Below, piece by piece: positions 1 to 41,800 of a stretch of DNA of 64,000 bases. Below the pieces are notes generated by a model. That model was not told the DNA's origin and made no database searches. It was given only the letters and a program-made list of their open reading frames with translations. This DNA comes from Chondrosia reniformis (lineage: Eukaryota > Porifera > Demospongiae > Chondrillida > Chondrillidae): the NCBI GenBank assembly GCA_947172415.1, contig OX359195.1, forward strand, positions 124,001-188,000, written 5' to 3'. Every line of letters begins with the position of its first letter. Position 1 is the first letter of the stretch. Both the position numbers and the translations under genes were made by a program.

Positions 1-415
1 ATGCGCAGTACTTCATTACCTGTGAGTGTGATGATGATATATAGAATATCATCTTCTCCACTTCATTCCCCATTCACCACTCTGACCCTAACACTATATT
101 CCCTCATTGCTATATAGCCCTTGTATGTGTATATGAAATGAGTTCCAAGTATATGTAGACAGGATCTGTGAAAGGCTGTGCAGAAGCTACTGACTAGTAT
201 TGCTTCTCAAGTATATGACTTATCTTTGAACCTGTTTAAGTGATAATTTATATGCCTGTCTTATGGCTATCCCATAGTTGGTCTTAGTTGTTCTGCATAC
301 TATCTGTTTATCAGTGAATTTTAAAGTGTTCATTTGAGAAGAGATATCTTGTGTACCTATAGTGCAAATTAGTTCCAATGGTCAATCCTAATGACCAATC
401 AAATCCATTTTACAG

Positions 416-1579
416 AAAGGTTTCACTGATCTTGTTGAATGTGGAGTTGGACAGTGCAGGACACTCAGGAAGGTCACCATGAGAGCTGGTGGACATCAAA
501 AACTGACCTCCAGTATATTGAAGGGAATGATCCAGAATCCTTCTTTGGAACAAGTTAAACTGAAGAAATGTGACTTTAAAGGTAGGTTTTATAACATTAT
601 GTACAGAATGTATTGCCTATGGACTTAATAAGTTTCATCAACTATGAGGATCATGTACTCTATACAGTCATCTCAATAGTCAGAATGGTTGTGTTCAGTA
701 AAGTGTCCCTTTCAAGTGATTAGTAGCCAATGCATATCCTCTCTCTACATTCCCTCTCTATGTTCCACATGCTAGTAGCCATCATAAATACATGGTGTAT
801 TTTAAAACTAATACACAAACATTTATTTTAAAGTTGCAGTGTGTTGATGAACTGTAATCTGATTGGTTCCTTCAACTGACAGGAAATGGAGCATTACTAT
901 TGGAACTGCTACAGAGGAAACAGTTGAAGAGTGTTACACTTGGTGAAGGATCGTGTTACAACATCACACCGAGGATCATTGCTAATGTTATAGTCTGTCT
1001 ACGTGACAATACTTCATTGAAAGAACTCAACATCAGTACTGAAACAAAACAGTCTGAGGTACACTTGACTAGTAAATATAACTTTCTCTTACTTGTTCCA
1101 GTCTATGTGTGTTCCAGTCTGAGTGTTTTAGATTAGGTAATCACTTCATATTGTAGTACATGTATTTAACTGTTCCGGATACATTTGTACAGAATATCCA
1201 GGATGTCACTGAAGAAGATGTCTTGACATCAGTTGAACAAGCTGTCAAGGAGAACACTACACTAGAGAGGTTGGAAGTGAATAGTAGACTGAGTGAAATG
1301 AACTGGAGGAATGTTGCAGAGAGCATTCTAAAGGGAGCAGCAGCCAATCAGAATCTCAGAGAGTTGGAACTGGTGATAAATGAGAAATACAAAAAATATC
1401 CTCCTAAACAGGAAGTGATTGAGATTGTAAGAAAAGACAACAGGAAATTGAGACTCATTGTTAGGATAGGTAAGTGAATGTCTTTGATCATCTGTTTGTA
1501 CATGTAATACGTAGTTTGGTTAACAGTATATAGATTTATAAATTCTTCTCTTTTTGTTCCAGGAACTGATTACTTGTGA
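416..1579 (+). CDS. 3' part of a leucine-rich-repeat protein (four exons seen)
   Basis: The exons I can support are 416-581, 883-1058, 1193-1469 and 1563-1579. All have GT/AG borders, phases agree, and the stop is TGA at 1577-1579. The translation carries leucine-rich-repeat segments of ribonuclease-inhibitor style, for example NPSLEQVKLKKC, NTSLKELNIS, NTTLERLEVNS and NQNLRELELVI. Such repeats form binding surfaces and are common in NLR-type receptors, which are numerous in sponges. No NACHT or other signature domain is in view, so the receptor idea is inference. A possible earlier exon ends at base 21 before gtgagt, so the gene starts to the left of the window. An AATAAA signal lies 56 bases after the stop. 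Its 3' end converges with that of the ADAR gene, about 180 bases away. Confidence 0.72.
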
Positions 1580-1817: not shown

Positions 1818-4800
1818 TCATTGTGTTGAAGGTGTGTCAAATTGACTAGTTTCTCTCGGCTTCCTCATCCACTTTCCAAATCCTCTCTCAGCAGCTCCTT
1901 CTACAAGAGCCTTCTTTGCCAACTGGTACTCCACTGAACTCAACTTGACTTCTCCGTAACACTCTTCTCTCTCTTCAAACTTTCCCAATTTCACAACATT
2001 TTGATAGAGAGAGAAGAGCGAGGACTTGCTGATACGAGATACATCAGTCTTAGAGGAGGGGTGTGGCCTGCCACTCCCACCATCAACCAGCTCCGCCCCC
2101 AGGTCTCCTAGCGACCAGTTGATACTGTAATTGCTAGTTTTCTCAGTGTGTCTCCTCATCTCGTTACCCCCGGTTACACACCCCAAATATGGATGGTTTA
2201 CCTTATAAGGAGCAGGAAGGTTGGGTAATCCCCCAAACCTGCAGCAGACAGCCCTTGACAGATGGCCATGATGGTGGAGACTGCCCAGTATCAGAGAGGA
2301 CAGGTAGATGGGATGGATGAACCTGCTCAGCAGTGCTCCCTGTACTCCCACCACGTTCCACTTTGCCAACTTGTCACTGCAACTCATTGTCCTCAGACGA
2401 CCTCCCAACTGAACTCCATCCCAGGTCTGGTCTGGCTCGTCAGACCTCACTGGTATGGTGCCCTCTCCTCCCTCCATCTTTGTGCGGAGGAGACCCTGCT
2501 GTTTGGTCCTCATGGTGGGCTTGTGTGGGTATCCCATGGCAACCGGGTCCTTCACCTCCCCCTCTGAAATGTCTCCGCGTGAGAACTGCGCACCATCTCC
2601 GCAGGGGGCGGTGCTAATGTACAAGTGGAACGAAATGCCGTCTTTCAATTGGACCTTTTGTGAGGATGAAGCCATAAATATGCTGTCCTGGTTGCCATGG
2701 AGATGGGCTTCCAACTGTTGATAAAAGAATCTAATTAATGATCGCCTAGCAACCACTTCTGCATGTGAGTCATGGACTACTGTTCCCTCCAAACTCAACT
2801 TGTCCCCTTCAACACATCTAGTGCCCGTTCCTATGGTAACCACAGTGGGCGTGGCATTGTCAGAAAAGGTCATCACAAACCCAGCCACCACCTTTCTCCC
2901 AGGTTGCGCAATGGAGAGACTGGCTGAGAGGTGACTGTGTTTCTGGTGTACCAACATTGCCATGTGGTCTGCAAACGAGTCAGAGAGGTTTGGGTCTGGT
3001 ACAGGCAGACCCTCCTGGCAGCCATCTTGTTGAAGGGAGCACTGTATCCTTTGCAGGGCCAGATCAGCAGCTCTTCTCTTTGCCTCCTTCTTACTGGTAG
3101 CTTCCGCCTCAAAGTAGCACTCTCCCAACTTGACTGCCACCACGTAAATGTTCTGACCCTCCAAGTTCTGCTTCTCTCTGACCTCTATGAACTCTAGAGG
3201 AATGCCAATCTTCTGGTTGATCTCGTGGAGAGCACTGACAGGGTTCTTGGACATGTCATTCACTATCTCTGCCACCTGAATCACTGATGAATTGGGAATG
3301 GGAATGGTGAAATCTGAAGTGGAACCTGAGACATCATCAGTTAATTCAGAGTTGTGTTCCATTTCCATGTAATCTTGTTGACCAGTTCTTTGATCTTCAG
3401 ATCTGCCAATCTCATCAGCATTGTAATGTTCAGATGAACCTGTCCAGTGAGTGGGTGTGGCGTCTGTGTTTCCATGGTAACCTACACAAAAACCTTGTAT
3501 AGCTTGACCAAGATCGTCCAAATCTGGACTTGTCTCTGAGGAAGGATTCTGATACCCACTTTCACAATCAAAATTGGGAGTGGAAACACTCCTTGGTGTC
3601 CCAGATGTTCTGTTCATGAATGAGTCCTCAAAAGAGCTGTCACTTTGTGGAGTAGCTCTCAGAGAGATCCTCCACTTGGCAGGGAAGGCTGTACTCATCT
3701 TCTCCACTCTCCCCTCTCCTTCCAACTCGTTGATGGCCTCTAGGATGAGGTCGCGACTACATCTCATCACCTTTCTCAACTCCTCTGCATTCATGGCCAA
3801 GTGGTACTCTTCTAGAACTATAAGAATGTCCCTCTTCAGCATGACCATATTTGGATCATCCTCAACAGGTTCAGAGGTGAGTCCTCCTGTTGAGGTGGAG
3901 GGAGTGAGATGGGAGTGAGTGTCTCGAGGTTGACTGGTATCAACTGTTACATTTTGAAACTGATTTGCCTCTTCTTTATTGTTGTCATGGATACCAGGTT
4001 CTTCAGCTGCATCCCTTATGATTGTAGTATCAGGTTGTGTTGCCATGGAAACTGATGCTGTTGCTATAGAAACTGCTGATGTCTGAACATCCATATCTGT
4101 ATTGTCAGTGGAAGTCTGTTCAGGAGGGAAATCCCCTTCGGGTGGTTGTGGGACACTCTTTTCAGTTGCTGAATTAAGAGCCAACAAGCCACGCCCCCTC
4201 CCCACCCCCCTAGCCTGAGGTAGCTCTGTAATGTTATATTTCCCAGGACCTTTAGTCCTACTCCCACGAGAACTTCTATAGCTGCCCCTGTGAGCACCCC
4301 TGGAGTAGGTTTGGTGTCCCTTGTAGGGACCCCTGGAGTAGTCCAGTTGACGATTTCTCCTTTCGGCTACACTCTTATAGGTTGCACGGCCACGCCCACC
4401 GTTACCACGGTGACTGGCTAGTGACCAATATGGCCGTTGTCCAGTAGGACCAGCTCTGTGAGACATCTGGATCAGCCCCCTCTTCTCCATGGGGTAAAGT
4501 AGAGGGTTTACCTCTTTAGCAGTAGTCAGTCCCAACTCCTTTCCAATAGCAAGAGCACTTAATGGCTCCTCGCTTCTAGTCAGCAGAGAGAGGATCTTGT
4601 TCTCTGCATCTAATAGGGAGTAGGGAGGAGAAAGGTTTCACAAGTCTTCTTGAGGGGAAAGGGAGGAGAGAGGGGAGAGAGGGAGGAGAGAGTGAAAGAG
4701 AGATGGAGAGGAGAGAGGGGGATTGAGAGGGAGATGGAGAGAGGGGGATTGAGAGGGAAAGAGAGATGGAGAGGAGAGAGGGGGATTGAGAGAGAGATGG

Positions 4801-5605
4801 AGAGAGGGGGATTGAGAGGGAAAGAGAGATGGAGAGGAGAGAGGGGGATTGAGAGAGAGATGGAGAGAGGGGGATTGAGAGGGAAAGGGAGATGGAGAGG
4901 AGAGAGGGGGATTGAGAGGGAAAAGGAGAGGGAGATGAAGAGGAGAGAGGGAGGGGAGAGACCCTTATGTAATCCTGTACTTCACACAACAGTGACCACA
5001 GTGCCACCCTTACCATGTCTTTCAGATCCCATCTTTGAGGAGGTCGAGGGGCTGGTCTGTTTCTCCTGTGCCATACTCCACACTGGAGGGCCCTGCCCAC
5101 TTTGAAACATCTTTACACGCCCCCTTTCTCGTAGACCATATAAGGAATTGTTTACATCTGATTTCTTAATGCTTGTCTGTCCTAATGACTTGGCTATTTC
5201 AGTAGCTGTGACAGGCTGACCGGAATGAGCCCCAAGCTGCGAGAGAACATCTCTTTCCAGCTGGGAGAGGCTACCTGAAAGTGGAAGATGGATGGGTGGA
5301 TGGATGGATGGAAGGATGGGTGGATGGATGGATGGATGGGTGGATGGATGGATGGAAGGATGGATGTATGGATGGATGTACTTACTATTCTGCTGGTTAG
5401 GGCTACACAAGCTCCATAAAGGTGCATTTCCTGAGTTTAGAGGTCTTTTAGAGTGAACACGCCCACTTCTTTCCATCCGATACAAAATAGGGTTTACCTC
5501 AGAGGACACAGAGAGCCCCACTCCTTTAGCTATCTGCAGGGCAGTAAAGGACACGCCCACTCTCTTGGATGAGAGAAATGATAAAATCTTTTGTTCCAAA
5601 TCCAT
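1818..5605 (-). CDS. ADAR: ADAR: double-stranded RNA adenosine deaminase with three Z-alpha domains
   Basis: Three exons (5605-5386, 5274-5014, 4603-1818) join in phase into 1088 residues. Order: Z-alpha 1 (about 1-72), Z-alpha 2 (76-140), Z-alpha 3 (161-222), an Arg/Gly-rich stretch (224-299), a fourth degenerate winged helix (411-477), one dsRNA-binding domain (614-681) and the deaminase domain (703-1081). Catalytic residues are intact: HAE at 774-776, PCGD around Cys828 and SCSDK around Cys902. Z-alpha 2 keeps the full contact set (K..N...Y and PPVW); Z-alpha 1 has Ser for the Lys and APLW, and Z-alpha 3 has RPYW. The enzyme converts adenosine to inosine in duplex RNA; Z-alpha domains bind left-handed Z-DNA or Z-RNA. 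All four helix domains lie in the N-terminal half, as in vertebrate ADAR1 p150. One Z-alpha per exon start suggests domain duplication. It is head to head with another Z-alpha gene. First Met is at 5605. Confidence 0.95.
4631..4960. repeat. GA-rich minisatellite in ADAR intron 2
   Basis: Tandem purine-rich units (GGAGAGAGGGGGATTGAGAG core, with longer higher-order units) fill most of the intron between Z-alpha 2 and Z-alpha 3. Open frames across it are repeat artefacts. Confidence 0.9.
5287..5379. repeat. GGAT microsatellite in ADAR intron 1
   Basis: A GGAT/GGGT tetranucleotide array that occupies nearly the whole 111-base intron between Z-alpha 1 and Z-alpha 2. Confidence 0.9.
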
Positions 5606-6209
5606 TCCAATTCCAATGCATTTGTGGATAATACAATAGTCAACAATATGGTATTCAGATCCTTCAAATACCTTCAGAAAGGTTAAAGGTCAGATTAAAT
5701 CCAATGGACCTACATATAGTAATGTAGTAATGCAATAATCTGCATTGAACTATATACTGAACTGTCACATACAATGAGGGCTGGGGTGAAATGGAACATT
5801 AATATTATTTACACAATTCAATTAAAATAACACAACAGAGGAATATATGAAACCTTTTCTTCTACACACTGTTAATACACAACAATTGAGCACAATTGTG
5901 TAATTAACAGTACATGTATACGTACAACTTACCGCGATCAATTTTGACAATAAAAGACGTTTAAGAACTTACTGAATCGTCCTATCTCCTAATCCGCTCC
6001 TCTACACTTGTGAACAGTTTGGATTTCTAATCACACACTGGACTTAGTATTTCTGGGAAATTTGTCGGGACAATCCCGTCACGTGCATGCCATATATGGC
6101 AGTTCTACTCGGCGTTCCTGGAAAGGCTTCGGTTTTCGAGATTCTCAACCAAACAAGAGAAACTGATCGCTGCTCGCTGGTTAAAGGTTTCACAACTACA
6201 GGTTACAGA
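5606..6209. promoter_or_regulatory. Shared head-to-head promoter of ADAR and the Z-alpha gene
   Basis: The divergent start codons are about 600 bases apart with no other gene between. Near the right-hand gene lie a STAT-type palindrome TTCTGGGAA (6051-6059), an E-box CACGTG (6080-6085) and a perfect CArG box CCATATATGG (6090-6099). No TATA box is evident on either side. The motifs are seen directly; binding by STAT, USF/MYC or SRF factors is inferred. Confidence 0.5.
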
Positions 6210-7052
6210 ATGGCCGCTCGACCCGCTACGGAAGAGGAAATCTTGGATTTTTTGGGACAACAGACAACATCTCTAACGGGAAAGGAGATCGGACAGAAGA
6301 TGGGATATCAAGGGAGAAAAGATGTCAATAGACAGTTACATAATCTCGAAAAGGCGGGAAGGGTTCGAAAAGATTCCACTAAACAGCCTCCCGAGTGGAG
6401 CCTTGTGGGACCGCGGCCACACCCACAGAGTGCCACGCCTCCAACCCTCCTGCAGCACCAGAAAAGTGATCCAGTCACTTTGGAGGGTAGACCCCTGTAC
6501 ACATTAGAAGAGAGATATGATGGCACGAAAGTGATGACGCCAGTTTGTGACAATGACCTCACCTCCAAACCCGCTCCTACGCAGGCAGAGGGTGAGCAAG
6601 AGCTGAGAGGAAGGTCTGAACTGGAGGCCCCAAACCTCAACCCTCCCAAGCTGGAACAAGTAATTACAGCTCCAGTGAGGGAACAGGGAGGTATTGAGCA
6701 ATCTGTAGGTGGTGTTGCACAAGGCCTTGGAGATTTGACTGTATCTACCAACCAACAAGAGAGCAGTGATATTGCACAACATAGCAGTGATATTGCGCAA
6801 CAGAGTGGCCATGTTGAGTCATCAGAGTCCCAACCACCAATTCCTAAGCCAAGGTCAAAATTGACACCAACTGAAGAAGACAAACAAAATCATTTGAAGT
6901 TTTTGAAAGAGAACCGACAACAGTATCTGTCAACTGAAGAAATATTTAATACATTGGGCACTAATCGAGTGCTGACACTCAGAATATTGCAAGACTTTAA
7001 ATCTTCAGATTTAGTGGAACAAAAGGACAAAGATCAGTGGAAGCTAAAGTAG
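6210..7052 (+). CDS. Z-alpha domain protein, second winged helix at C-terminus
   Basis: Single exon. From the Met at 6210 the product has 280 residues. The N-terminal domain (about 5-67) is a clear Z-alpha: LTGKEIGQKMGY, then KDVNRQLHNL with the DNA-contacting Lys and Asn, then PPEW with the Pro-Pro-x-Trp wing. The Tyr of the KxxNxxxY motif is His. A low-complexity Ser/Gln/Pro middle follows, and the last 55 residues form a second helix-turn-helix with a wing Trp (DQWKL) but no Lys/Asn contacts. That layout matches the N-terminal half of the adjacent ADAR without its dsRNA-binding and deaminase domains. An in-frame ATG at 6087 would add 41 residues, but it sits in a poor context and overlaps the CArG box, so I prefer 6210 (A at -3, G at +4). 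Likely role: Z-form nucleic acid recognition; function otherwise unknown. Confidence 0.85.
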   Translation: MAARPATEEEILDFLGQQTTSLTGKEIGQKMGYQGRKDVNRQLHNLEKAGRVRKDSTKQPPEWSLVGPRPHPQSATPPTLLQHQKSDPVTLEGRPLYTLEERYDGTKVMTPVCDNDLTSKPAPTQAEGEQELRGRSELEAPNLNPPKLEQVITAPVREQGGIEQSVGGVAQGLGDLTVSTNQQESSDIAQHSSDIAQQSGHVESSESQPPIPKPRSKLTPTEEDKQNHLKFLKENRQQYLSTEEIFNTLGTNRVLTLRILQDFKSSDLVEQKDKDQWKLK

Positions 7053-7647: not shown

Positions 7648-8485
7648 TCAGTACTTGTGGGATTCGGTGCCTCCTCGACCAAACCCACCTGGGCCAAAGA
7701 GGGCGGAGTAGCAGGGCTTGTTACAATATGGCTTCCCTTCATGCTGGAAAGAGAGAACAAAATATGAACAATTTATATTTGACACATACAGAGGTACCTC
7801 TCAATAGTATATGTATAGCATACTACATAGAACTCCCCATATTGGGTGCTCTGCGTATGACACATTACAGTAATGGACTATTCTTTGAAGTGTTATTAGA
7901 GTAAGCCCACTGTATATTCTTCTGTTGTCAAAATAACATTTTCAAGTTGACTAGTAAAGAGTGTGTCAATTGTGTCTTCTGAATCATCCCTTCGCAAATG
8001 GAAGAGTGGACATGAGTAAGTTGTCGAGAACAATATTGCGAACATTCCAGTCGTCTTGTCTACTCCAAAATGATATGGAAAACATTTATATAACTTAGAT
8101 GTTTTATATTTAAGTTTGCAAGTGAATAATACGAGCTAATTTTTAAACTATTGCATTCTCGCATCTCAGACACTCTACCTCAAAGCGAATCGAATGTATG
8201 TTTGCATGAAATGCTTTCTCTCTATAACTCCCTAATGAATTTAACGGATTTGTTATCAAAAGTGGTGCAATATGGCTAATAGCTCACTTCAGCGTGTCCA
8301 CCAGGAGAAAGTGTTTTCTTACATTTTGCGCACTTTAAACACGCTTTATGCCAATCCTTTCCGAGTGAAGTCACCTTCTCCGCTACAAAAGGGATCGAGA
8401 GGAGTCAAAGTCAGTGTTAAAGCTATATATTTGCTTTCAACTCACCGAAATATACTTCTTTTGAACACGTTGGACACTTTGGCAT
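7648..8485 (-). CDS. CRIP1: Cysteine-rich protein of the CRIP family, single LIM domain
   Basis: Three short exons (8485-8446, 8382-8288, 7743-7648) splice in phase into 76 residues; vertebrate CRIP1 has 77. The protein opens [13 protein letters not shown], continues [15 protein letters not shown] and ends with YCNKPCY and [14 protein letters not shown], near-identical to vertebrate CRIP1. The eight LIM zinc ligands are in place (C4, C7, H25, C28, C31, C34, C52, C56). LIM domains are protein-binding zinc fingers; CRIP proteins are small cytosolic or nuclear adaptors with loosely defined roles. The exons are too short to appear as long open frames. The donors are gtgagt and gtgagc and the acceptors are ttttgtag and tttccag. 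The symbol is by homology; orthology to CRIP1 rather than CRIP2/3 is untested. Confidence 0.95.
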
Positions 8486-17523: not shown

Positions 17524-20500
17524 TTATAGGAAACATAGTATAACGGTTGCCATGACAACCAGTAGGTTAGCAAAGAGTCCAAGACCTCTTAGTGAAAGTG
17601 CTGTATTAGGGTTATTGATAATGTTGAGCTGCTGAAGGATGACAGTAGTATTCTGGTGATCATTCTTTGAATCTAAAACGGCTTGCAACACCTCTTCAAT
17701 GTCTCCATCCCCCTTTGATCTCAAGTAAGGATTTTCCTTGATACTTGGGAGTCCAGGGGGCACCACTACACTAGTGTCTCCGCCCACACTCTGCTGGTTC
17801 CAGCAGTTGGACTGTGGGAGACCAGCGCACATCAGATCAGCTGATCTCTGAGACAGACCGTCCAACAGCCGGTAATGGGACTCTTCCAGTTCCTTAAAGG
17901 CCTACAGAATTTTATAGTAATACATAAAAGGATGAGTACATTGTGAAGAAATGAGTTATTGATAAAGATTACTTGACTTTGGGTATTAAAGGACACACCC
18001 ATCTCTCTCCTCTCCTATTAGATGACACACCCATCTCTCTCCTCTCCTATTAGATGACACACCCATCTCTCTCCTCTCCTATTAGATGACACACCCATCT
18101 CTCTCCTCTCCTATTAGATGACACACCCATCTCTCTCCTCTCCTATTAGATGACACACCCATCTCTCTCCTCTCCTATTAGATGACACACCCATCTCTCT
18201 CCTCTCCTATTAGATGACTCACCCATCTCTCTCCTCTCCTATAAATACTCTATTAGATGACACACCCATCTCTCTCCTAATGTGAACACAGACATGCAAC
18301 TGGAGCAGCAACTTACAGTTGTGTAGAGAGTGTTGGTCAAGGAGTCTGGAATTGGTCCAGTTTGTCTGCGAAGTCTTCTCCTCAAATGAGAGGTCCTTGT
18401 GACAGTCCTTACAGATCTCTTTCTGTTGACAGACCCGCCCACATTCTCCTCACTGACACACCTACCAAGCTACAGGGGGAGGTGCACCAGTAATATACAC
18501 ACTCACCAAGCTACAGGGGGAGGTGCACCAGTAATATACACACCCACCCAGCTACAGGGGGAGGGGCACCAGTAATATACACACCCACCCAGCTACAGGG
18601 GGAGGTGCACCAGTAATATACACACTCACCCAGCTACAGGGGGAGGGGCACCAGTAATATGGCTGGCTGGAGCAATTAGTGACACTTTCCCTAAAATACT
18701 GCTTCAAAGATGCCTAATTTTAAGGTGCTTGGTATACCTTAACTAGGAAATCCTTTTCTGTCAGTTCGTCCAAAGTGGTAATTTTACCAATTTCTTCAAT
18801 CAAACTGTTTATGGCACTGTTAAGGCTTCTCTCAGCAGCCATTTTGTTCAAGAGAAGAGCTATTCCCTGTAGAGAGTACACCAGAAATATAGTCATTGCT
18901 ATTCTATGAATGAGTCACTTTTGTGTCAAATACTCCAAACAGTATATCATCTGCATTAGTCTACATATTAACATTAGTATATACGTACATATGTATATTA
19001 ACAAAAGAATTTACATTTCATAGATAAATTTAACGTCATCTATAGAAAGGTAGTGAGTGTTTTAGATTACTCATGTATACAGAAATAGTCTTAGCAATCA
19101 TGGGTATTGAATACTTTTAATAGTCTGTACTGCCTAATGTACGTAATGTAATGTCGTGCTATTCTGATTAAACGAATTCGATTTATCATACGCAATACAG
19201 AATATAACATGTTCTTACAGCAGAAGAGACTTCAAACTGTCTAAAGTCTTCATAAAAGGCAGTACATCCAAACATGACATTTCGGCACACGTTCCTGCAC
19301 GGTTTACTGGAGGGTTGGTTGGGCTGGGTGCTGCAGACCTGACAGTGGAACAGCTCTGCATGTGCCCGTACACACTCCCTCAGAGGAGACAAGTCTAAGC
19401 CAGCGTTGAAGGCATAGTTGAAGATGTGCAGTGCCAAATTTCTCATCAGATGAAGAGCCTTAAAATGAAAGTTTACGATGGAAATGTGTTTCTCCAAATC
19501 AAAGAGGGGCCTTTGAATGGCTGTGCGTGCAACACAGTCAAACATAAAGTCGGTGTAACTGTCTTCTACACCAAGTTCTTCTCTGTAGTGGTTGAGTGCA
19601 ATACCGGCCACATATCTGTTGATTAATGTGGTCACCATCTCATCAGAGTCACCGATGTCATGGGCAAAGAGCAACTGTTGTTCCAGAGGCCGCAACACAT
19701 CGACATCCACACTTCCAAGAGGTTCTGGAGCTTGATCACGCAGAACACTAGCTATGCTTGCAGCCACATTATCTCCTTGGTCTACAGAGGGAGTGAGGAG
19801 GTGAGGGAGTGAGGAGGTGAGGGAGTGAGGAGGTGAGGGAGTGAGGAGGTGAGGGAGTGAGGAGGTGAGGGAGTGAGGAGGTGAGGGAGTGAGGAGGTGA
19901 GGGAGTGAGGAGGTGAGGGAGTGAGGAGGTGAGGGAGAGAGGAGGTGAGGGAGTGATGAGGTGAGGGAGTGAGGAGGTGAGGGAGTGAGGAGGTGAGGGA
20001 GTGAGGAGGTGAGGGAGTGAGGAGGTGAGGGAGAGAGGAGGTGAGGGAGAGAGGAGGTGAGGGAGTGAGGAGGTGAGGGAGTGAGGAGGTGAGGGAGTGA
20101 GGAGGTGAGGGAGTGAGGAGGTGAGGGAGAGAGGAGGTGAGGGAGAGAGGAGGTGAGGGATAGAGGAGGTGAGGGAGTTAGGAGGTGAGGGAGTTAGGGG
20201 AGTGAGGGAGTGAGGGAGTAAGGGGAGTGAGGGAGTGAGGGAGTAAAAATCTTTGTAATAAATACAATACTTGTAGCGATAAAGATATTTCTGGTATTTT
20301 AATGAGCATGACATCTCAAAAGGTACATTGAGCTAGTCCAATAATAAAACTTGTGTAATGAAGCTCTTGGCAGTTTGCATACATGGGCAAAGAGAAAATG
20401 GACAATATCCTGAAGCCATACTTGTTCATCATGTGACAGTCAATTAGTTTAAGAAGTGCAAAATCAAAGAAGTCTGTCTCACTTCCATATAAGGTAACAC

Positions 20501-23305: not shown

Positions 23306-26300
23306 TTATAGGAAATACAGTATAACGGTTGCCATGACAACCAGTAGGTTAGCAAAGAGTCCAAGACCTCTTAGTGAAAGTGCTGCATTAGGGTCATCAA
23401 TATTGACGTTGATAGGGTCGTCGGTAGGGTCGCCGGTAGGGTCGCCGGTTGGGTCGCCGGTAGGGTCGCCGGTAGGGTCGCCGGTAGGGTCGTCGGTAGG
23501 GTCGTCAGTAGGGTCGTCGGTAGGGTCGTCGGTAATGTTGAGCTGCTGAAGGATGACAGTAGTATTCTGGTGATCATTCTTTGAATCTAAAACGGTTTGC
23601 AACACCTCTTCAATGTCTCCATCTCCCTTGGATCTCAAGTAAGGATTTTCCTTGATGCTTTGGAGTCCAGGGGGCACCACTACACTAGTGTCTCCGCCCA
23701 CACTCTGCTGGTTCCAGCAGTTGGACTGCGGGAGACCAGCGCACATCAGATCAGCTGATCTCTGAGACAGACCATCCAACAGCCGGTAATGGGACTCTTC
23801 CAGTTCCTTAAAGGCCTACAGAATTGTATAGCAATATATTATATAAATACGTACTCATACATAAAAGGATGAGTAAAGAAATGAGTGATTGATAAAGATT
23901 ACTTGACTTTGGGTATGGGTATTAAAGGACACACCCATCTCTCTCCTCTCCTATAAATACTCTATTAGATGACACACCCATCTCTCTCCTCTCCTATAAA
24001 TACTCTATTAGATGACACACCCATCTCTCTCCTAATGTGAACACAGACATGCAACTGGAGCAGCAACTTACAGTTGTGTAGAGAGTGTTGGTCATGGAGT
24101 CTGGAATTGGTCCAGTTTGTCTGCGAAGTCTTCTCCTCAAACGAGAGGTCCTTGTGACAGTCCTTACAGATCTCTTTCTGTTGACAGACCCGCCCACATT
24201 CTCCTCACTGACACACTCACCCAGCTACAGGGGGAGGGGCACCAGTAATATACACACCCACCCAGCTACAGGGGGAGGGGCACCAGTAATATACACACCC
24301 ACCCAGCTGGAGCAATTAGTGATGCCTATATTTTAAGGTGAATGGTTTCTTAACAACATTTCATACCTTAACTAGGAAATCCTTTTCTGTCAGTTCCTCC
24401 AAAGCAGTAATTTTACCAACTTCTTCAATTAAACTGTTTATGGCATCGTTAAGGCTTCTATTCTTAGCAGCCATTTTGTCCAAGACAAGAGCTATTCCCT
24501 GTAGAGGAGTACAAAAGAAATATAGTCATTGCTATTCTATGAATGAGTCACTATTCTGTCACAGTATATATTAACATTAGTATATACATTGTATATTAAC
24601 AAATTCACATTTCATAGATAAATTTAACCTCATAATCATGTCTATAGAAAGGTAGTGTTTTAGATTACTCATGTATACAGAAATAGTCTTAGAAATCACA
24701 GGTATTTTAAAAGGCTGTAAAGGCTATTGAATACTTTTAATAGTCTGTACTGCCTAATGTAATGTAATGCAGTGCTATCCTGATTAAACAGATTCAATTT
24801 GTCATAAAAGGTAAGTCACATGTATGTCCTCAATATGTGGACAGTAGAATACACACAAAAGTCTAACACGTTCTTACAGCAGAAGAGACTTCAAACTGTC
24901 TAAAGTCTTCATAAAAGGCAGTACATCCAAACATGACATTTCGACACACGTTCCTGCACGGTTTACTGGAGGTTTGGTTGGGCTGGGTGCTGCAGACCTG
25001 ACAGTGGAACAGCTCTGCATGCGCCCGTACACACTCCCTCAGAGGAGACAAGTCTAAGCCAGCGTTGAAGGCATAGTTGAAGATGTGCAGTGCCAAATTT
25101 CTCATCAGATGAAGAGCCTTAAAATGAAAGTTTATGATGGAAATGTGTTTCTCCACATCAAAGAGGGGCTTTTGAATGGCTGTGCGTGCAACACAGTCAA
25201 GCATGAAATCGGTGTAACTGTCTTCTACTCCGAGTTCTTCTCTGTAGTGGTTGAGTGCAATACCGGCCACATATCTGTTGATTAATGTGGTCACCATCTC
25301 ATCAGAGTCACCGATGTCATGGGCAAAGAGCAACTGTTGTTCCAGAGGTTGCAACACATCGACATCCACACTTCCAAGAGGTTCTGGAGCTTGATCACGC
25401 AGAACACTAGCTATGCTTGCAGCCACATTATCTCCTTGGTCTAAAGAGGGAGTGAGGAGGTGAGGGAGTGAGGGAGTGAGGGAGTGAGCGAGTGAGGAGG
25501 TGAGGGAGTGAGGAGGTGAGGGAGTGAGGAGGTGAGGGAGTGAGGAGGTGAGGGAGTGAGGAGGTGAGGGAGTGAGGAGGTGAGGGAGTGAGGGAGAGAG
25601 GAGGTGAGAAAATGAGAGTACGTAGGCCCGTGTGTGTGTGTGTGTGTGTGTTTGAAGACTGACCATAACTGTCCAAAATGCTGTTCCTCAGGAGATCTAT
25701 CATCTCCCCGGCATAGGAGGGAGGAATGAAGTTGGCCAGAGCATCGCGAGTTGTGTTTTCCAAGAGCTGCTCAATATGACTGTTACAGCAAGTCTCTGTA
25801 ACCTCTGGGCACAGCTGAAGGAACTGACCTGGAGGAGAATGAGAGGGATTGTCAACAGGACAGTAAAAGTAACAATATATTGGACAAACACTCTTAGACT
25901 AGTCGTATATATTGAACTTGAAATGGTTTAACTGTACACTTTCAGGACAACATCATCTATTTCTGTGCAAGGGAATTACAGGTACGTATATACCATATAT
26001 AGTTTGATGCATATACTAGGTGCACTCTCACACATAAAAATATATCTATAACATATTATATATTTAATTTACATGTATATTCCAGTTTATTAAACCGATA
26101 CAGTACGTCAACTAAAATCGTTTATATATATACTACTTATTAATGCTGCATGTATATAGCCTATATGTGTATATAGCCTATATATGAACGCCCCCTAGCC
26201 TAGGCTAGGGGGCGTTCCACACACATTTTTAGATCTCTATATATACTTCGCTCACCATTTACTGGAGATTCTGGTATCAGTGTCCCGTCATATCCTCTTT

Positions 26301-29800: not shown

Positions 29801-32800
29801 AACAGGTAGTGTTCCATCAATAGTTCACATATGTACAGTAAATATTCACAGTGATAACCAAACCACAAGTGTAGTGGCTGGAGATGAAACATGTACATAT
29901 TCACAGTGATAACCAAACCACAAGTGTAGTGGCTGGAGATGAAACATGTACATATTCACAGTGATAACCAAACCACAAGTGGAGTGGCTGGAGATGAAAC
30001 ATGTACATATTCACAGTGATAACCAAACCACAAGTGTAGTGGCTGGAGATGAAACATGTACATATTCACAGTGATAACCAAACCACAAGTGTAGTGGCTG
30101 GAGATGAAACATGTAAATATTCACAGTGATAACCAAACCACAAGTGTAGTGGCTGGAGATGTAACATGTACATTCACAGTGATAACCAAACCACAAGTGC
30201 TACAAATGCATGCAACACATTAAGGGTGACCATACAGGTAGTACTAGAGACCTTTGTCATAAAACATTTACAATGTCACCACGGCTTAAGAACTAGGCAA
30301 CATGGTAAAAGTGAAGAAGTTGAGGAAATTTCACGTTTAACAATACAATTGCTATGTACATATTCACCAACCTCAAACCTTTGCCAAAATACACTAACAC
30401 AGGAGTAATATTATCAACGCAACATTCAAGAGGTTTTGTGGTATGTTTGGTTACCTTGGTTACCAGTCTGTCTACTATGGATTCTATCCACTCTATGCTG
30501 TCCTCCAAGGTCAGTCCTGAGGACACCAAATGACCATACTCATCCAGCACTACAAGTGGAGACAGAACAACACTAGGGGTATGTGGTCTCAAAAGAGGAT
30601 GGGTTCAGAGAGGGGGTGTGGTCACAGAAAAGGGGTGTGGTCTCAAAAGAGGGGTGTGGTCTCAAAAGAGGAGGTGTGGTTTCAAAAGAGGGGGTGTGGT
30701 CTCAAAAGAGGGGTGTGGTTTCAAAAAGGAGGGGGTCAGAGAGGAGGGGGTGTGGTCACAGAAGAGTGGGGCGGGAAAAGAGGATATCCGATGAAAAGTG
30801 CAAACAAAATCAATAATAGCTACTGTAAATCCCTTATTATTAGCGTGCTTTTAAATTTAGCTATATTAGCGATTTGACATTTACCGCTAAAATTAGAGTT
30901 CGCTAAATATAGTACTAGTACTAAATAGAGTACTACTGTAATTATTTATTACTGTAATTAACTAACAAAACTTCCATGCATTTTGTAAGTCGCCAATATT
31001 AAATTCCGCTATGTAGGGGTAAAATCCAGTTTCGCTAACTTTTGGTTCCGCTTAAATAAAGGGATTTACAGTAATCATCTCAACTGCCCTTCCCAGGTCA
31101 CACCTCCTCCCACTTAGAGTTTTCAGTCATTTATTAACTCACAAATATTAATCATGTCCTGAAGATGCTGTGGTAAACTGTGTGATTGTGCTATCCACAT
31201 GGTGTGTGAAGCAATCATTTTTAGATCAAGCTGCTTCCAGTCTCTCCTCATTTGGTCTTGAGAGTCCAGACCCTTAATGGCCACCCTGGTGGCATTGGAG
31301 AGTTGGGCCAGTGAGGTCAACCTCTTTAAAGTGCTACACATTCCATTCAACACTACGACCAGTACACAATCATTTAATACACATACACTGCCTATTATTT
31401 ATATACACATACACTGCCTATTATTTATATATTGTTAATATTAATATACTAAAGAACAGTCTTCAGTAATATATTAGAACTATTAATGAGTGCAAGCAAA
31501 CATGAACTTCACAGCAGACACAGTCTTACACTAACAATACTATTGTTAACATCAAGTGACTAATGTAATTACAACTCTACTCTACAATACATATAACACC
31601 ACGAGATCTCTGATATAATTGTACCAGTTCATTAGGCATATACTTAAATAGTTCCAGTCAAAGTTATATCCTCTGTATATATAGCACTTGGTATGCATCA
31701 CTTTGAAGTTTAAATTTGTTACCTCTTCCTGGAAAGGTTAATCAACTAAACTAAAGTTAATGTTGTTGATGATACAATTGCCAATTCTTTGTGTACATAT
31801 AGCACAAATCAACTGTAATTCTACAGATACATATTGCTATCATTAAGTGAATTGGAAACATTTCAACACTCACAATCTAAACTTGCACCATCACATAATA
31901 AAGTACATAAAACAAGATCACACGAATTAATGCTATTACAGATCACATATACTGTACATACATTGTGTATGCTACATACTGTATGGTATATGATGAGCAA
32001 GCTAATCAATTTAGTTATTACAGGAAATGCTTTAAAGTGAAGCAACATTGTTAAGAAGATGTGGATGAAGGAATCTGTCTCATGGCAACACATTTAGAAC
32101 AACTATAAATACAACCTCAAGCTGCTCACATAGTCAGCTAATAGTTACTGCTGCAGCTACCACAATGACCTCACTAAAGTGTATCCCCACTGTTCTGTTG
32201 CTGGTAGCTCTTCTAACTATGATGGTCTTTCAAATAACATCTCTTGGACTACACATTGCAGACCTTATAGGGAAAAGAGAAGATCAACAGAACGGTCAAG
32301 TGGGAAGGAATGAGAGTGTTACTCAGTTTACAACTAGTGAACTGAAACAACATTCAGAAGAAAGGAAATATTTACAAGAGGAGCTGAACAGATTAAAGGA
32401 TATAATAGCAGAAGTCAAAGAGAACACTACTGAACTTATTCAGAATGGTGAAGTGAAACAGCTTTTGGAAGAAGATAGGAACAGCACTCATGAGGAGCTG
32501 AACAGATTGAAGGATATAATAGCAGAAGTCAAAGAGAACACTACTGAACTTATTCAGAATGGTGAAGTGAAACAGCTCTTGGAAGAAAATAGGAACCGTA
32601 CTCAAGAGGAGCTGAACAGATTGAAGGATATAATAGCAGAAGTCAAAGAGAACACTACCGAACTTATTCAGAATGGTGAAGTAAAACAGCTCTTGGAAGA
32701 AGATAGGAACCGCACTCAAGAGGAGCTGAACAGATTGAAGGATATAATAGCAGAAGTCAAAGAGAACACTACTGAACTTATTCAGAATGGTGAAGTGAAA

Positions 32801-35800
32801 CAGCTCTTGGAAGAAGATAGGAACCGCACTCAAGAGGAGCTGAACAGATTGAAGGATATAATAGCAGAAGTCAAAGAGAACACTACTGAACTTATTCAGA
32901 ATGGTGAAGTCAAACAGCTTTTGGAAGAAGATAGGAACCGCACTCAAGAGGAGCTGAACAGATTGAAGAATATAATAGCAGAAGTCAAAGAGAACACTAC
33001 TGAACTTATTCAGAATGGTGAAGTGAAACAGCTTTTGGAAGAAGATAGGAACCGCACTCAAGAGGAGCTGAACAGATTGAAGGATATAATAGCAGAAGTC
33101 AAAGAGAACACTACTGAACTTATTCAGAATGGTGAAGTCAAACAACTCTTGGAAGAAGAAAAGAACCACACTCAAGAGGAGCTGAACAGATTGAAGGATA
33201 TAATAGCAGAAGTCAAAGAGAACACTACTGAACTTATTCAGAATGATAAAGTGGAACGGCTCTTGGAAGAAGAAAGGAACCGCACTCAAGAGGAGCTGAA
33301 CAGATTGAAGGATATAATAGCAGAAGTCAAAGAGAACACTACTGAACTTATTCAGAATGGTGAAGTCAAACAGCTTTTGGAAGAAGAAAAGAACCACACT
33401 CAAGAGGAGCTGAACAGATTAAAGGATATAATAGCAGAAGTCAAAGAGAACACTACTGAACTTATTCAGAATGGTGAAGTGAAACAGCTCTTGGAAGAAG
33501 AAAAGAACAGCACTCAAGAGGAGCTGAACAGATTAAAGGATATAATAGCAGAAGTCAAAGAGAACACTACCGAACTTATTCAGAAAGATAAAGTGAAACA
33601 GCTCTTGGAAGAAGATAGGAACCGCACGCAAGAGGAGCTGAACAGATTAAAGGATATAATAGCAGAAGTCAAAGAGAACACTACTAAAGAGATTGAGAAT
33701 GAGCTAAACTCTTTTGCTGCTAAACTTCAAGTAACTGAATTAACTCTTTGTAACATTTCTAGTTTCAATTGGAGAAGAGTGGCCTACATCAATATGACTG
33801 ATCCAGAAGAAGAGTGTCCAAGTGGTCTTAATGAAGTCACTGACAGCACCACAGGACAAAGAGCTTGTGGAAGGAGTGTTGATGGAGCAGGCTTCACAAT
33901 TGCAGCTTCTAGAGGATGCTCTTCAGTGACCTTTCCTGTGAATACTACTTACTCTCATGTATGTGGTATTGCTAGAGGATACCAGTACTATTCAATGGAT
34001 GCATTCACAAAGTCGCCAATAAGAACTATAGATGATGCATATGTTGATGGCCTCTCCATCACCCATGGCAACCCAAGGAAGCATCTGTGGACACTGGTAG
34101 TAGGTCTTAATGAAGTAACCTTTCATTCATTAGCAAGATGCCCTCTAGACCTGGACACATATGACATCAGCTTAATTCCTGACTTTGTTAAAAACAATTA
34201 TTATTGTGAAACTGGCTATGAGACAAGAGATGAGGCGAGGATTGCTTGGGAGGATCCTCTGTGGGATGGACAGCAGTGTGTCTCAAGTACTGCACAGTCT
34301 TGTTCAAGATATGGCTGGTTTCATCGTGAAATTGCACCAAGTCAAGAAGACATAGAAGTCAGGTGGTGTGCTGATGAACCAAGGAGTACTGAAGACTTCT
34401 ACACTGACCATTTGGAGATCTGGGTCCTTTGAATTACAACAGTCAACATAGCTAAGCAAGGCAAACTGTTGGAACTATTATAGTTACTAAACATTTCATT
34501 AGGAAATTGTTTACTCATTTATTAATCTTATAGCTAAAAGGTGTGTGTGCTAAATACACAACTAGTCAAAGTGATAATCAAACCACAAGTATAATATAGT
34601 CAGTCTAAAACATCATGAAGGGGGAAAAACAGAAAAGAAGCAATTGCTTGGAATTGAACCCAGGTCACACCATAATTCAACCAACCCACCAAATATTATT
34701 CCTGCCAAAATACGGCTATAAGGTATAAATATATATTATGTCTGTCACTAAAATGGCAGACACTTATTTGCACACATTTGGTTTATAACTTAAGTTGTGC
34801 CAACAATTGATGAGTCTATCAAACTGACAACTAAATCTAGCAAGTAGTTGAGTTCAGGGAACCCAAAAGTTTTAGGGGGACAGGCAGCCCCTTAAATTGT
34901 TTTAATTTGCCGATTCCATTGAATGGCTTCATGTGTTATCTACTGTCCGTAACTGTCCGTAACATGAGTGATCACATAATATGTCAGTAACTGAGGTGCT
35001 ATTAGGGAGTCCGGGTGTGTGGATACTGGTGTGAGTGATCATTACGTGGTTTATGTGATATGGAAGGAGTTGGGTACTCAATATAATGGTCATAGAATGA
35101 GGAAAGTCAGGATATTTACAAGTGGCTATGAGGATCAGTTGCTCACTGATCTTAGGCAGGTGCAGTGGGAGGATATTATGAATAGTGGAGGCACCTTTCA
35201 ATTTAGGCCTGAAGATGAAGAAGGGATTGCACATGTTTTGGGTAATCTCAATGTTTCCAAAGCTACAGGAGTGGATGGCATTAGTGCAGGAATGCTCAAG
35301 CTAACTGCCCCTGCCATTAGTAGTAGCATGTGTGGCATTTTCAATGAGACTTTGATGATGGCAGAGATTCCGGTTCAATGGAAAGCAGCCAGGATCGTAC
35401 CTATCCCTAAGTCTACCCATGCTAAGTGTGTAGAGGACTTCCGCCCAGTGTCTGTCCTTCTGTAGTAGTAAAGGTATTTGAGAGCTTGGCATCCACATGG
35501 AAGTGCTACACATTCCATTCAACACTATGGCCAGAACATAATCATTTAATACACATACACTACCTATATTAATATACTAAAGAACTGTCTTCAGTGTAAT
35601 ATTAGAACTATTAATGAGTACAAGCTTGTATAAGGTGGTGGTAGGCTTTAAACAACTAACCTCTACTTAATAACACATCACCAAATAAAATACTTATGGT
35701 TTTATAAGAACCTTCAAATGAGTGCCAGATTTGTAAGCATTTACATTCATTGAATGTAGCCTTCAACCTATTAGATTATAAAACCACAAGTATTTTATTT

Positions 35801-38800: not shown

Positions 38801-41800
38801 GCTGAAGAATAGTGTGTTATTCATGGGTCGCCTCCCTCTGGCCCCTCAAATAGCCTTTATCCATATGGTCAGAGTCCAGACCCTTAATGGCCACCCTGGT
38901 GGCATTGGAGAGTTGGGCCAGTGAGGTCAACCTCTTTAAAGTGCTACACATTCCATTCAACACTATGGTCGCAACACAATCATTTAATACACATACACTG
39001 CCTATTATTTATATATTATTAATATTAATATACTAAAGAACAGTCTTCAGTAAAATATTAGAACTATTAATGAGTGCAAGCAAACATGAACTTCACAGCT
39101 GACACAGTCTTACACTAACAATACTAGTTGCTAAGATCAAGTGACTAATGTAATTACAACTTTACTCTACAATACATATAACACCACGAGATCTCTGATA
39201 TAATTGTACCAGTTCATTAGGCATATACTTAAATAGTTCCAGTCAACGTTATATCCTCTGTATATATAGCACTTGGTATGCATCACTTTGAAGTTTAAAT
39301 TTGTTACCTCTTCCTGGAAAGGTTAATCAACTAAACTAAAGTTAATGTTGTTGATGATACAATTGCCAATTCTTTGTGTACATATAGCACAAATCAACTG
39401 TAATTCTACAGATACATATTGCTATCATTAAGTGAATTGGAAACATTTCAACACTCACAATCTGAACTTGCACCATCACATAATAAAGTACATAAAACAA
39501 GATCACACGAATTAATGCTATTACAGATCACATATACTGTACATACACTGTGTATGCTACATACTGTATGGTATATGATGAGCAAGCTAATCAATTTAGT
39601 TAATACAGGAAATGCTTTAAAGTGAAGCAACACTGCTAAGAAGATGTGGATGAAGGAATCTGTCTCATGGCAACACATTTAGAACAACTATAAATACAAC
39701 CTCAAGCTGCTCACATAGTCAGCTAATAGTTACTGCTGCAGCTACCACAATGACCTCACTAAAGTGTATCCCCACTGTTCTGTTGCTGGTAGCTCTTCTA
39801 ACTATGATGGTCTTTCAAATAACATCTCTTGGACTACACATTGCAGACCTTATAGGGAAAAGAGAAGATCAACAGAACGGTCAAGTGGGAAGGAATGAGA
39901 GTGTTACTCAGTTTACAACTAGTGAACTGAAACAACTTTCAGAAGAAAGGAAATATTTACAAGAGGAGCTGAACAGATTGAAGGATATAATAGCAGAAGT
40001 CAAAGAGAACACTACTGAACTTATTCAGAATTTGGAAGTGAAACAGCTTTTGGAAGAAGATAGGAACAGCACTCATGAGGAGCTGAACAGATTGAAGGAT
40101 ATAATAGCAGAAGTCAAAGAGAACACTACTGAACTTATTCAGAATGGTGAAGTCAAACAGCTCTTGGAAGAAAATAGGAACCGCACTCAAGAGGAGCTGA
40201 ACAGATTGAAGGATATAATAGCAGAAGTCAAAGAGAACACTACTGAAATTATTCAGAATGGTGAAGTGAAACAGGTTTTGGAAGAAGATAGGAACCGCAC
40301 TCAAGAGGAGCTGAACAGATTGAAGGATATAATAGCAGAAGTCAAAGAGAACACTACTGAACTTATTCATAATGGTGAAGTGAAACAGCTCTTGGAAGAA
40401 GATAGGAACCGCACTCATGAGGAGCTGAACAGATTGAAGGATATAATAGCAGAAGTCAAAGAGAACACTACTGAACTTATTCAGAATGGTGAAGTGAAAC
40501 AGCTTTTGGAAGAAGATAGGAACCGCACTCAAGAGGAGCTGAACAGATTGAAGGATATAATAGCAGAAGTCAAAGAGAACACTACTGAACTTATTCAGAA
40601 TGGTGAAGTTAAACAGCTTTTGGGAGAAGCAAGGAACCGCACTCAAGAGGAGCTGAACAGATTGAAGAATATAATAGCAGAAGTCAAAGAGAACACTTCT
40701 AAAGAGATTGAGAATGAGTTAAACTCTTTTGCTGCTAAACTTCAAGTAACTGAATTAACTCTTTGTAACATTTCCAGTTTCAATTGGAGAAGAGTGGCCT
40801 ACATCAATATGACTGATCCAGAAGCAGAGTGTCCAAGTGGTCTTAATGAGACCTCTAACAGCACCACAGGACAGAGAGCTTGTGGAAGGAGTGTTGATGG
40901 AGCAGGCTACACGCATGCAGCTCCTGGAGGATGCTCTTCTGTGACCTTTCCTGTGAATACTACTTACTCTCATGTATGTGGTTATGCAAGAGGTTATCAG
41001 TACAGGTCAATGGATGCATTCTGGAGGTCATATTTAAGAACTATAAATGATGCATATGTTGATGGCCTGTCCATCACCCATGGCAACCCCAGGAAGCATC
41101 TCTGGACACTGGCAGCTGGTGTTAGTGAACTTCATAGTACTTTAGCATTACAGTGCCCAAGAGATACTGATCCATTTGACTTCACTAGAGTACCTGACTT
41201 TGTTGGCAGTAACTTTTATTGTGAAACTGGATTCATTGGAACTGAATGGGAAGAGAGAACTGCTTGGGAGGACCCTTTGTGGGATGGACAGCAGTGTGTC
41301 TCAAGTACTGCACAGTCTTGTACAAGATATGGCTGGTTTCACCGTGACATTGAACCAAGTCAAGAAGACATAGAAGTCAGGTGGTGTGGTGATCAAGTAA
41401 GGAGTGATGAAGACTTCTACACTGACCTTTTGGAGATCTGGGTCCTTTGAATTATATATAACAGATTTTGGAGGTCCTTTGAAATACAACAGACAACATA
41501 GTTAAGCAAGGCAAACTGTTGTAACTACTAAATATATCATTAGGAAATTGTTTAGTCTTCATTAATTATTCATTAATCTTATAGCTAAAAGGTGTGTGCT
41601 AAATACATACACAACTAGTCAAAGTGATAATCAAACCACAAGTATAATATAGTCAGTCTAAAACATCATGAAGGGGGAAAAACATGAAAGAAGCAATTGC
41701 TTGGAATTGAACCCAGGACACACCATAATTCAACCAACCCACCAAATATTATTCCTGCCAAAATACCGGCTATAAGGTATAAATATATATTATGTCTGTC

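What the first reader, a model, noticed from the sequence alone, without database searches (positions are those of the whole stretch)
1818..7052. Head-to-head Z-alpha locus: ADAR with three Z-alpha domains beside a deaminase-free Z-alpha protein
The two divergent genes hold four Z-alpha domains with recognisable contact residues plus two degenerate winged helices. Each protein has the same order, Z-alpha first and a Trp-bearing degenerate helix domain later. In vertebrates the best known Z-form sensors are ADAR1 and ZBP1, on separate loci. Here an ADAR and a ZBP1-like adaptor-sized protein are physically paired in an animal without interferon. The simplest reading is an inverted duplication of the ADAR 5' half that freed a stand-alone Z-form sensor.
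Basis: partly seen in the sequence, partly recalled or inferred. Interest (0 to 1): 0.78.

Follow-up and report, generated by a model that had tools for sequence, protein, structure and literature searches.

The report
Sponge ADAR beside lone Z-alpha gene
In a sponge genome, the RNA-editing enzyme that recognises left-handed nucleic acid lies head to head with a small second gene carrying the only other such recognition domain found there, a pairing worth testing as an early animal Z-form sensing module, although the small protein's job and origin are unproven.

Summary
The minus-strand gene (1818-5605) is a 1090-aa ADAR1-type enzyme: three Pfam Z-alpha domains, a fourth winged helix, one dsRBD and a deaminase domain with its catalytic motifs. 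The divergent gene (6210-7052) is an intronless 280-aa protein with one Pfam Z-alpha (30 bits, cut-off 21) and a C-terminal winged helix. A six-frame search of the genome (lengths match Chondrosia reniformis) finds only these four Z-alpha domains. A three-Z-alpha sponge ADAR is already in print; my searches showed no report of the paired gene.

The stand-alone Z-alpha keeps N173, P192, P193 and W195 but has His for Tyr177. It is 32-34% identical to the ADAR domains, about as far as from human ADAR1 (32%) or goldfish PKZ (35%). The tree neither groups it with them nor rejects that. No DNA similarity or shared intron remains. No RHIM, kinase, dsRBD or deaminase was found in it, so 'ZBP1-like' is unsupported. 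Both degenerate helices score like ordinary bacterial winged helices. Adjacency favours shared origin or co-regulation. Best reading: a co-regulated, non-catalytic Z-form binder that tunes ADAR.

The parts
5386..5605 (-). ADAR coding exon 1, ATG at 5605, Z-alpha 1 (Pfam match 5408-5602)
   Evidence: (37.5 bits)
5014..5274 (-). ADAR coding exon 2, Z-alpha 2 (Pfam match 5063-5221), flanked by phase-1 introns
   Evidence: (29.7 bits)
1818..4609 (-). ADAR coding exon 3 with stop codon: Z-alpha 3, RG-rich stretch, winged helix 4, dsRBD, deaminase
4416..4610 (-). Z-alpha 3 (Pfam match)
   Evidence: 38.8 bits, best in the genome
4226..4409 (-). Arg/Gly-rich stretch after Z-alpha 3 (limits approximate)
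   Evidence: read from the translation
3639..3863 (-). Degenerate winged helix 4 of ADAR; keeps the wing Trp, lacks Asn173 and Tyr177 equivalents in the alignment
   Evidence: not separable from generic winged helices
3045..3245 (-). Double-stranded RNA binding domain (limits approximate)
   Evidence: PF00035 37.7 bits; coordinates
1857..2834 (-). Adenosine deaminase (editase) domain with HDSHAE, PCGDG and SCSDK motifs
   Evidence: (338 bits); best PDB match human ADAR1
5606..6209 (.). 604-bp divergent intergenic region, candidate shared promoter
   Evidence: sequence; promoter role inferred
6210..7052 (+). Stand-alone Z-alpha gene, single open frame, 280 aa
   Evidence: codon bias, (near tie with another frame in the last third)
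6228..6407 (+). Z-alpha of the stand-alone protein (N173 kept, Y177 is His, PPxW kept)
6834..7049 (+). C-terminal winged helix of the stand-alone protein, generic type

Best explanation
A conventional sponge ADAR1 (three Z-alpha, one dsRBD, deaminase) sits head to head with the only other Z-alpha gene found in the genome. The small protein has a Z-alpha-type winged helix, a linker likely to be disordered (inferred), and a second winged helix, and no catalytic or signalling domain that Pfam recognises. Most likely (inferred) both are transcribed from the shared 604-bp region and act on the same class of ligand: ADAR is recruited by Z-prone double-stranded RNA and edits it, so that RIG-I-like sensors do not read self RNA as foreign, while the small protein binds Z- or A-form duplex without editing and so competes with, or helps load, ADAR. 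The gene may descend from an old copy of an ADAR Z-alpha segment that diverged until only the fold and most contact residues remain. Shown: anatomy, uniqueness in a genome-wide search, presence of RIG-I C-RD domains. Inferred: co-expression, ligand binding, competition, descent.
For: The four Z-alpha domains found in the genome lie within 2.0 kb (4416-6407), and a genome search with the 280-aa protein finds, besides itself, only two of the ADAR Z-alphas. With about 17,340 genes (PMC12181767, passages), two given genes are neighbours by chance about 1 time in 8,700, and divergent neighbours about 1 in 35,000 (my arithmetic, made after the pair was seen). The Z-alpha scores above the Pfam cut-off and at 98% against a profile made only of non-window Z-alphas. 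N173, P192, P193 and W195 are kept, and so are K170 and R174 (the last two contacts recalled). The frame is intact; codon bias puts it first of six in each third, in the last third only just (0.100 v 0.098). The deaminase motifs are intact, with human ADAR1 the best solved match (303 bits v 288 for human ADAR2). Seven RIG-I C-RD matches give ADAR something to guard against. No effector domain in the 280-aa protein.
Against: No expression, binding or editing data. His for Tyr177 may weaken Z binding: the N-x-x-x-Y motif is reported essential, and the double change of N173 and Y177 abolishes binding (PMC11298590, passages). The Z-alpha is no closer to its ADAR neighbours than to other families, and no intron or DNA trace of a duplication is left. 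The codon-bias control is imperfect: it picks the right frame for ADAR exons 2 and 3 but not exon 1. I had no other sponge genome in which to see whether the pair is conserved.
Confidence: 0.42

Rival explanations
1. The small protein is a signalling adaptor that works like ZBP1: Z-alpha binds Z-RNA and the linker or C-terminal helix recruits an unknown sponge effector.
For: Adaptor-like size and layout; a NACHT frame lies just upstream of the window and RIG-I C-RD domains exist in the genome.
Against: The eight Pfam families listed for it at E<=10 include no RHIM, kinase, CARD, TIR or death domain, and only z-alpha is over its cut-off; no RHIM over the cut-off in the genome; ZBP1 Z-alphas only 21% (human) and 28% (mouse) identical.
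Confidence: 0.2
2. The small gene is a member of an independent, old stand-alone Z-alpha family (compare the Z-alpha protein predicted in Anthozoa) or came from a virus, and its place beside ADAR reflects co-regulation, not descent.
For: Highest pairwise identities are to cyprinid herpesvirus ORF112 (39%) and goldfish PKZ (35%), slightly above the ADAR neighbours; the free tree puts it with ORF112 (support 57/76, weak); intronless.
Against: The differences are within noise for about 60 columns, and the AU test rejects none of the five groupings tried. Scans of the viral contigs (37 pattern matches) and of the prokaryote contigs (102) with a three-domain alignment gave 0 relatives confirmed by tblastn; these scans use exact peptide patterns and could miss distant ones.
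Confidence: 0.22
3. The stand-alone Z-alpha is degenerate (His for Tyr177) and does not bind Z-form; the protein is an ordinary winged-helix nucleic-acid binder and its link to ADAR is historical only.
For: Tyr177 belongs to the motif reported essential; human Z-beta regained part of its function when Ile335 was changed to Tyr (PMC11298590, passages). The C-terminal helix scores like generic regulators.
Against: N173, P192, P193 and W195 are kept, as are K170 (among the ADAR domains only Z-alpha 3 has it) and R174 (none of the three has it); some coral Z-alphas have Phe at 177.
Confidence: 0.16

Closest known systems
ADAR1-like genes of sponges (Amphimedon queenslandica: 3 ZB, 1 dsRB, 1 AD; Grice and Degnan 2015, PMC4323055)
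   Same: Same count of recognised domains as the window ADAR
   Different: Here a further winged helix lies between the Z-alpha cluster and the dsRBD, and a Z-alpha gene lies head to head; neither is mentioned in the parts of the text I read (1 and 2 of 3)
ZBP1
   Same: Deaminase-free protein with N-terminal Z-alpha
   Different: No second recognised Z-alpha, no RHIM; Z-alpha identity 21% (human) and 28% (mouse)
PKZ
   Same: Goldfish PKZ is the best solved match of the stand-alone protein (E 0.00017)
   Different: No kinase domain
Poxvirus E3 and cyprinid herpesvirus ORF112 type Z-alpha proteins
   Same: Small Z-alpha protein without deaminase; the ORF112 domain is the closest by identity (39%)
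   Different: No dsRBD detected, whereas E3 has one (PMC11293857, passage); cellular gene with a second winged helix
Anthozoan Z-alpha protein predicted by Romero and others 2024 (PMC11298590)
   Same: Additional Z-alpha protein in an early-branching animal; in some coral families Tyr177 is replaced (by Phe)
   Different: Architecture and genomic place not given in the passages I read

Membership tests
ADAR1-like (window 1818-5605) | One or more Z-DNA binding domains, dsRBD, adenosine deaminase domain | tested here: met
   Pfam z-alpha x3, dsrm x1, A_deamin x1; definition from PMC4323055
ADAR1-like (window 1818-5605) | Catalytic His-Ala-Glu and the two zinc Cys motifs (recalled) | tested here: met
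   HDSHAE, PCGDG, SCSDK read from the translation and aligned with two paralogues
ADAR1-like (window 1818-5605) | Deaminase closer to ADAR1 than ADAR2 | tested here: inconclusive
   303 bits to human ADAR1, 288 to human ADAR2; no tree made
Z-alpha domain (stand-alone protein) | Profile match over the curated cut-off | tested here: met
   30.3 bits v 21
Z-alpha domain (stand-alone protein) | N-x-x-x-Y in the recognition helix | tested here: not met
   N kept, Tyr is His
Z-alpha domain (stand-alone protein) | P-x-W in the wing | tested here: met
   QPPEW
Z-alpha domain (stand-alone protein) | Binds or converts nucleic acid to Z form | not testable with these tools
   needs expressed protein
ZBP1 | RHIM | tested here: not met
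   No RHIM in the protein at E<=10
ZBP1 | Tandem Z-alpha and Z-beta | tested here: not met
   One Pfam Z-alpha; the second helix scores like generic winged helices
PKZ | eIF2-alpha kinase domain | tested here: not met
   No kinase in 280 aa
E3-type Z-alpha plus dsRBD protein | dsRBD | tested here: not met
   No dsrm in 280 aa

The most novel reading that the evidence does not exclude
A two-gene Z-form module at the base of animals: from one bidirectional promoter the sponge makes an editing Z-binder (ADAR) and a non-editing Z-binder that antagonises or licenses it, a self/non-self switch for left-handed RNA that predates interferon and evolved apart from ZBP1.
Probability: 0.22. Interest if true: 0.78.

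Novelty: new variant of a known kind. Interest (0 to 1): 0.5.

Why it matters
If the pair is conserved and co-expressed, it puts a dedicated non-editing Z-form binder next to ADAR in a sponge, so that the question of what Z-alpha domains did before interferon and ZBP1 could be tested in one small locus. It would also mean that the split between an editing and a non-editing Z-form protein arose more than once, or very early.

Tried and rejected
Inverted duplication as shown fact: rejected as unproven. blastn between the two genes gave only short words (best E 0.15 for this pair); the 12-domain tree has one starred branch of nine (the two ZBP1 Z-alphas) and groups the stand-alone domain weakly with ORF112; forcing all four window domains together costs 7.4 log units, AU p 0.138.

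Degenerate helices as Z-alpha relics: at first ADAR helix 4 looked Z-alpha-like (hhalign 82%, 0 of 200 shuffles) and the other did not (8.7%, 1 of 200 shuffles). With a profile free of window sequences both gave 48-49%, and three E. coli winged helices gave 49, 52 and 85% there, and 95, 18 and 88% (LexA, BirA, Lrp) against the first profile, so the claim was dropped. In its favour, the two window helices align over 56-57 columns with the wing Trp, the controls over 40-47 (free profile). Single-sequence AlphaFold models are weak (pLDDT 69.7 and 59.1); a Foldseek search with the first gave 592 matches at E<=10 and none at E<=0.001, bacterial regulators first, Z-alpha chains first at ranks 10 and 20. 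The second model was not searched.

Search for other sponges: deaminase queries to viral contigs (3 and 55 pattern matches) and prokaryote contigs (66), and a Z-alpha query to both (37 and 102), gave 0 relatives confirmed by tblastn. Synteny is therefore untested.
Full report
What was checked. The window is C7:124001-188000 of a 117,379,552-base genome in 15 contigs. Total size, 14 chromosomes plus a mitochondrion, and the lengths of C2, C5, C7, C10 and C12 match the Chondrosia reniformis assembly odChoReni1 (117.37 Mb; PMC12181767, passages). The species name is my inference from these numbers.

ADAR gene. Three exons on the minus strand, 5605-5386, 5274-5014 and 4609-1821 with the stop at 1818-1820, splice at GT..AG sites with phase-1 introns and give 1090 aa. 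Pfam finds three z-alpha stretches (91.4 bits in total), one dsrm (37.7) and A_deamin (334). Against solved structures, the best match of the deaminase is human ADAR1 (303 bits), then human ADAR2 (288). The enzyme motifs HDSHAE, PCGDG and SCSDK are present. An Arg/Gly-rich stretch follows Z-alpha 3.

Stand-alone gene. One open frame, 6210-7052 on the plus strand, 280 aa, with no intron. Its Z-alpha scores 30.3 bits against a cut-off of 21. Codon bias, trained on long frames of other loci and of the window beyond base 8000, puts this frame first of six in each third (0.143, 0.139, 0.100), in the last third only just (next frame 0.098, with six stops). The whole frame scores 0.130; the 95th percentile of 1,458 frames of window tiles, which overlap the training set and hold some coding sequence, is 0.058 and the 99th 0.183. 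As a control the measure picks the right frame for ADAR exons 2 and 3 but not for exon 1 (0.024 v 0.086 for another frame) (all). A genome search with the protein finds itself and, at E<=10, only two ADAR Z-alpha domains.

How many Z-alphas. A six-frame search with PF02295 gives four matches, all in this locus, at E<=0.001 and again at E<=10. A domain split by an intron could be missed, and the assembly's BUSCO is 71.1% complete.

Contact residues (N173, Y177, P192, P193 and W195 as in PMC11298590, passages; K169, K170 and R174 recalled). Stand-alone: Arg at 169, K170, N173, R174, His at 177, P192, P193, W195. Z-alpha 1: N173, Y177, P193 and W195 kept. Z-alpha 2: K169, N173, Y177, P192, P193 and W195 kept. 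Z-alpha 3: K170, N173, Y177, P193 and W195 kept. Z-alpha 1 and 3 have Pro right after N173.

Relationship. Identity of the stand-alone Z-alpha: ADAR Z-alpha 1, 2 and 3 33, 32 and 34%; human ADAR1 Z-alpha 32% and Z-beta 27%; goldfish PKZ 35%, a second PKZ (zebrafish, species recalled) 30%; ORF112 39%; ZBP1 Z-alpha 21% (human) and 28% (mouse); a 42-residue piece of human ZBP1 Z-beta 26%. ADAR Z-alpha 1 and 3 are 44% identical to each other, and so are ADAR Z-alpha 1 and goldfish PKZ (all; human and mouse labels of PDB chains recalled). The tree of these 12 domains has 1 starred branch of 9; it weakly separates a side with ADAR Z-alpha 1 and 3, human ADAR1 Z-beta and ZBP1 Z-beta from a side with the stand-alone domain, ADAR Z-alpha 2, PKZ, ORF112, human ADAR1 Z-alpha and ZBP1 Z-alpha (40/88). 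Held-together tests: four window domains p 0.138; three ADAR domains p 0.231; stand-alone with ORF112 and PKZ p 0.53; stand-alone with Z-alpha 2 p 0.242; stand-alone with Z-alpha 1 p 0.226. The tree decides nothing.

Degenerate helices. Against a Z-alpha profile free of window sequences, the four Z-alphas score 98% probability or more (63.7-74.5) and the two other helices 48-49% (24.4). 0 of 218 real-protein tiles and 0 of 200 shuffles of each reach 24.3, but LexA, Lrp and BirA score 24.3, 30.8 and 24.4. They are winged helices of undecided kin. They do not resemble each other (no BLASTP alignment at E<=100; hhalign 0.5%, 6 of 100 shuffles as high).

Setting. The genome has seven RIG-I C-RD matches over the cut-off, six of them on C9, and four RHIM matches at E<=10, none over the cut-off. 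A NACHT frame lies 2.5 kb before the window (C7:119787-121517). That sponges lack interferon is recalled, not tested.

Literature. [quoted passage not shown] so the ADAR here is not new in kind. Herbert 2024 (PMC11293857, passages) places Z-alpha in ADAR from sponges on. Romero 2024 (PMC11298590, passages) predicts a further Z-alpha protein in Anthozoa. A 2023 paper on metazoan editing (PMC9989829, passages) finds editing mainly in repeats in almost all animals studied, sponge included, in line with a role on self dsRNA. Titles and abstract starts listed by my searches for sponge or invertebrate Z-alpha and ADAR papers showed no stand-alone Z-alpha gene beside ADAR: 25 of 29 papers, 20 of 26, 5 of 17,376 (uninformative), 20 of 21, 15 of 63, 15 of 18. 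Supplements and closed journals were not seen.

Verdict. A real, tidy and probably non-random gene pair whose partner protein is a small Z-alpha protein of unknown action. Chance adjacency of two given genes among about 17,340 is about 1 in 8,700, and in divergent order about 1 in 35,000; this treats gene order as random and was worked out after the pair was seen. It argues for common descent or co-regulation but does not tell which.

Noticed in passing
G000 C10:1716925-1727352 and 1287160-1290409 (L016-L018); C2:431478-461209 (L019-L022); C12 (L024); C5 (L023): The genome gives 19 A_deamin matches (one over the cut-off only with its neighbours), among them seven single-frame copies on C10 (five in tandem), which show H-A-E and Cys motifs in the printed frames; no Pfam dsRBD in the two copies scanned. 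Five more lie on C2 among TRIM/NHL-like frames, only one near full length: a marked expansion of ADAR-like deaminases.
   Followed up: partly
G000 C9:4756125-4959255: Six RIG-I C-terminal domain matches lie within about 200 kb, suggesting a cluster of RIG-I-like receptors.
   Followed up: no
L031:5787-7517 (C7:119787-121517) and window 1-1480: A NACHT-domain frame just upstream of the window; the exons at the window start that look leucine-rich by eye may be its 3' part, but Pfam gave no match at E<=0.01 for the two frames scanned.
   Followed up: partly
window 4610-5013 and 5275-5385: ADAR intron 2 is largely a purine-rich GA repeat and intron 1 a GGAT repeat on the plus strand.
   Followed up: no
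window 32069-34432 and 39654-41450: Two near-duplicate frames encode proteins with a hydrophobic N-terminal stretch and differing numbers of a coiled-coil-like repeat.
   Followed up: no
window 19186-20193 and 24863-25687: Two near-duplicate minus-strand frames; the one scanned has a Pfam Glypican match just over the cut-off (30.1 v 26.4 bits).
   Followed up: no
window 5408-5602 and 4416-4610: ADAR Z-alpha 1 and 3 share Pro right after the key Asn in the recognition helix (E-V-N-P-x-L-Y), unlike the other ten Z-alphas in the alignment.
   Followed up: no
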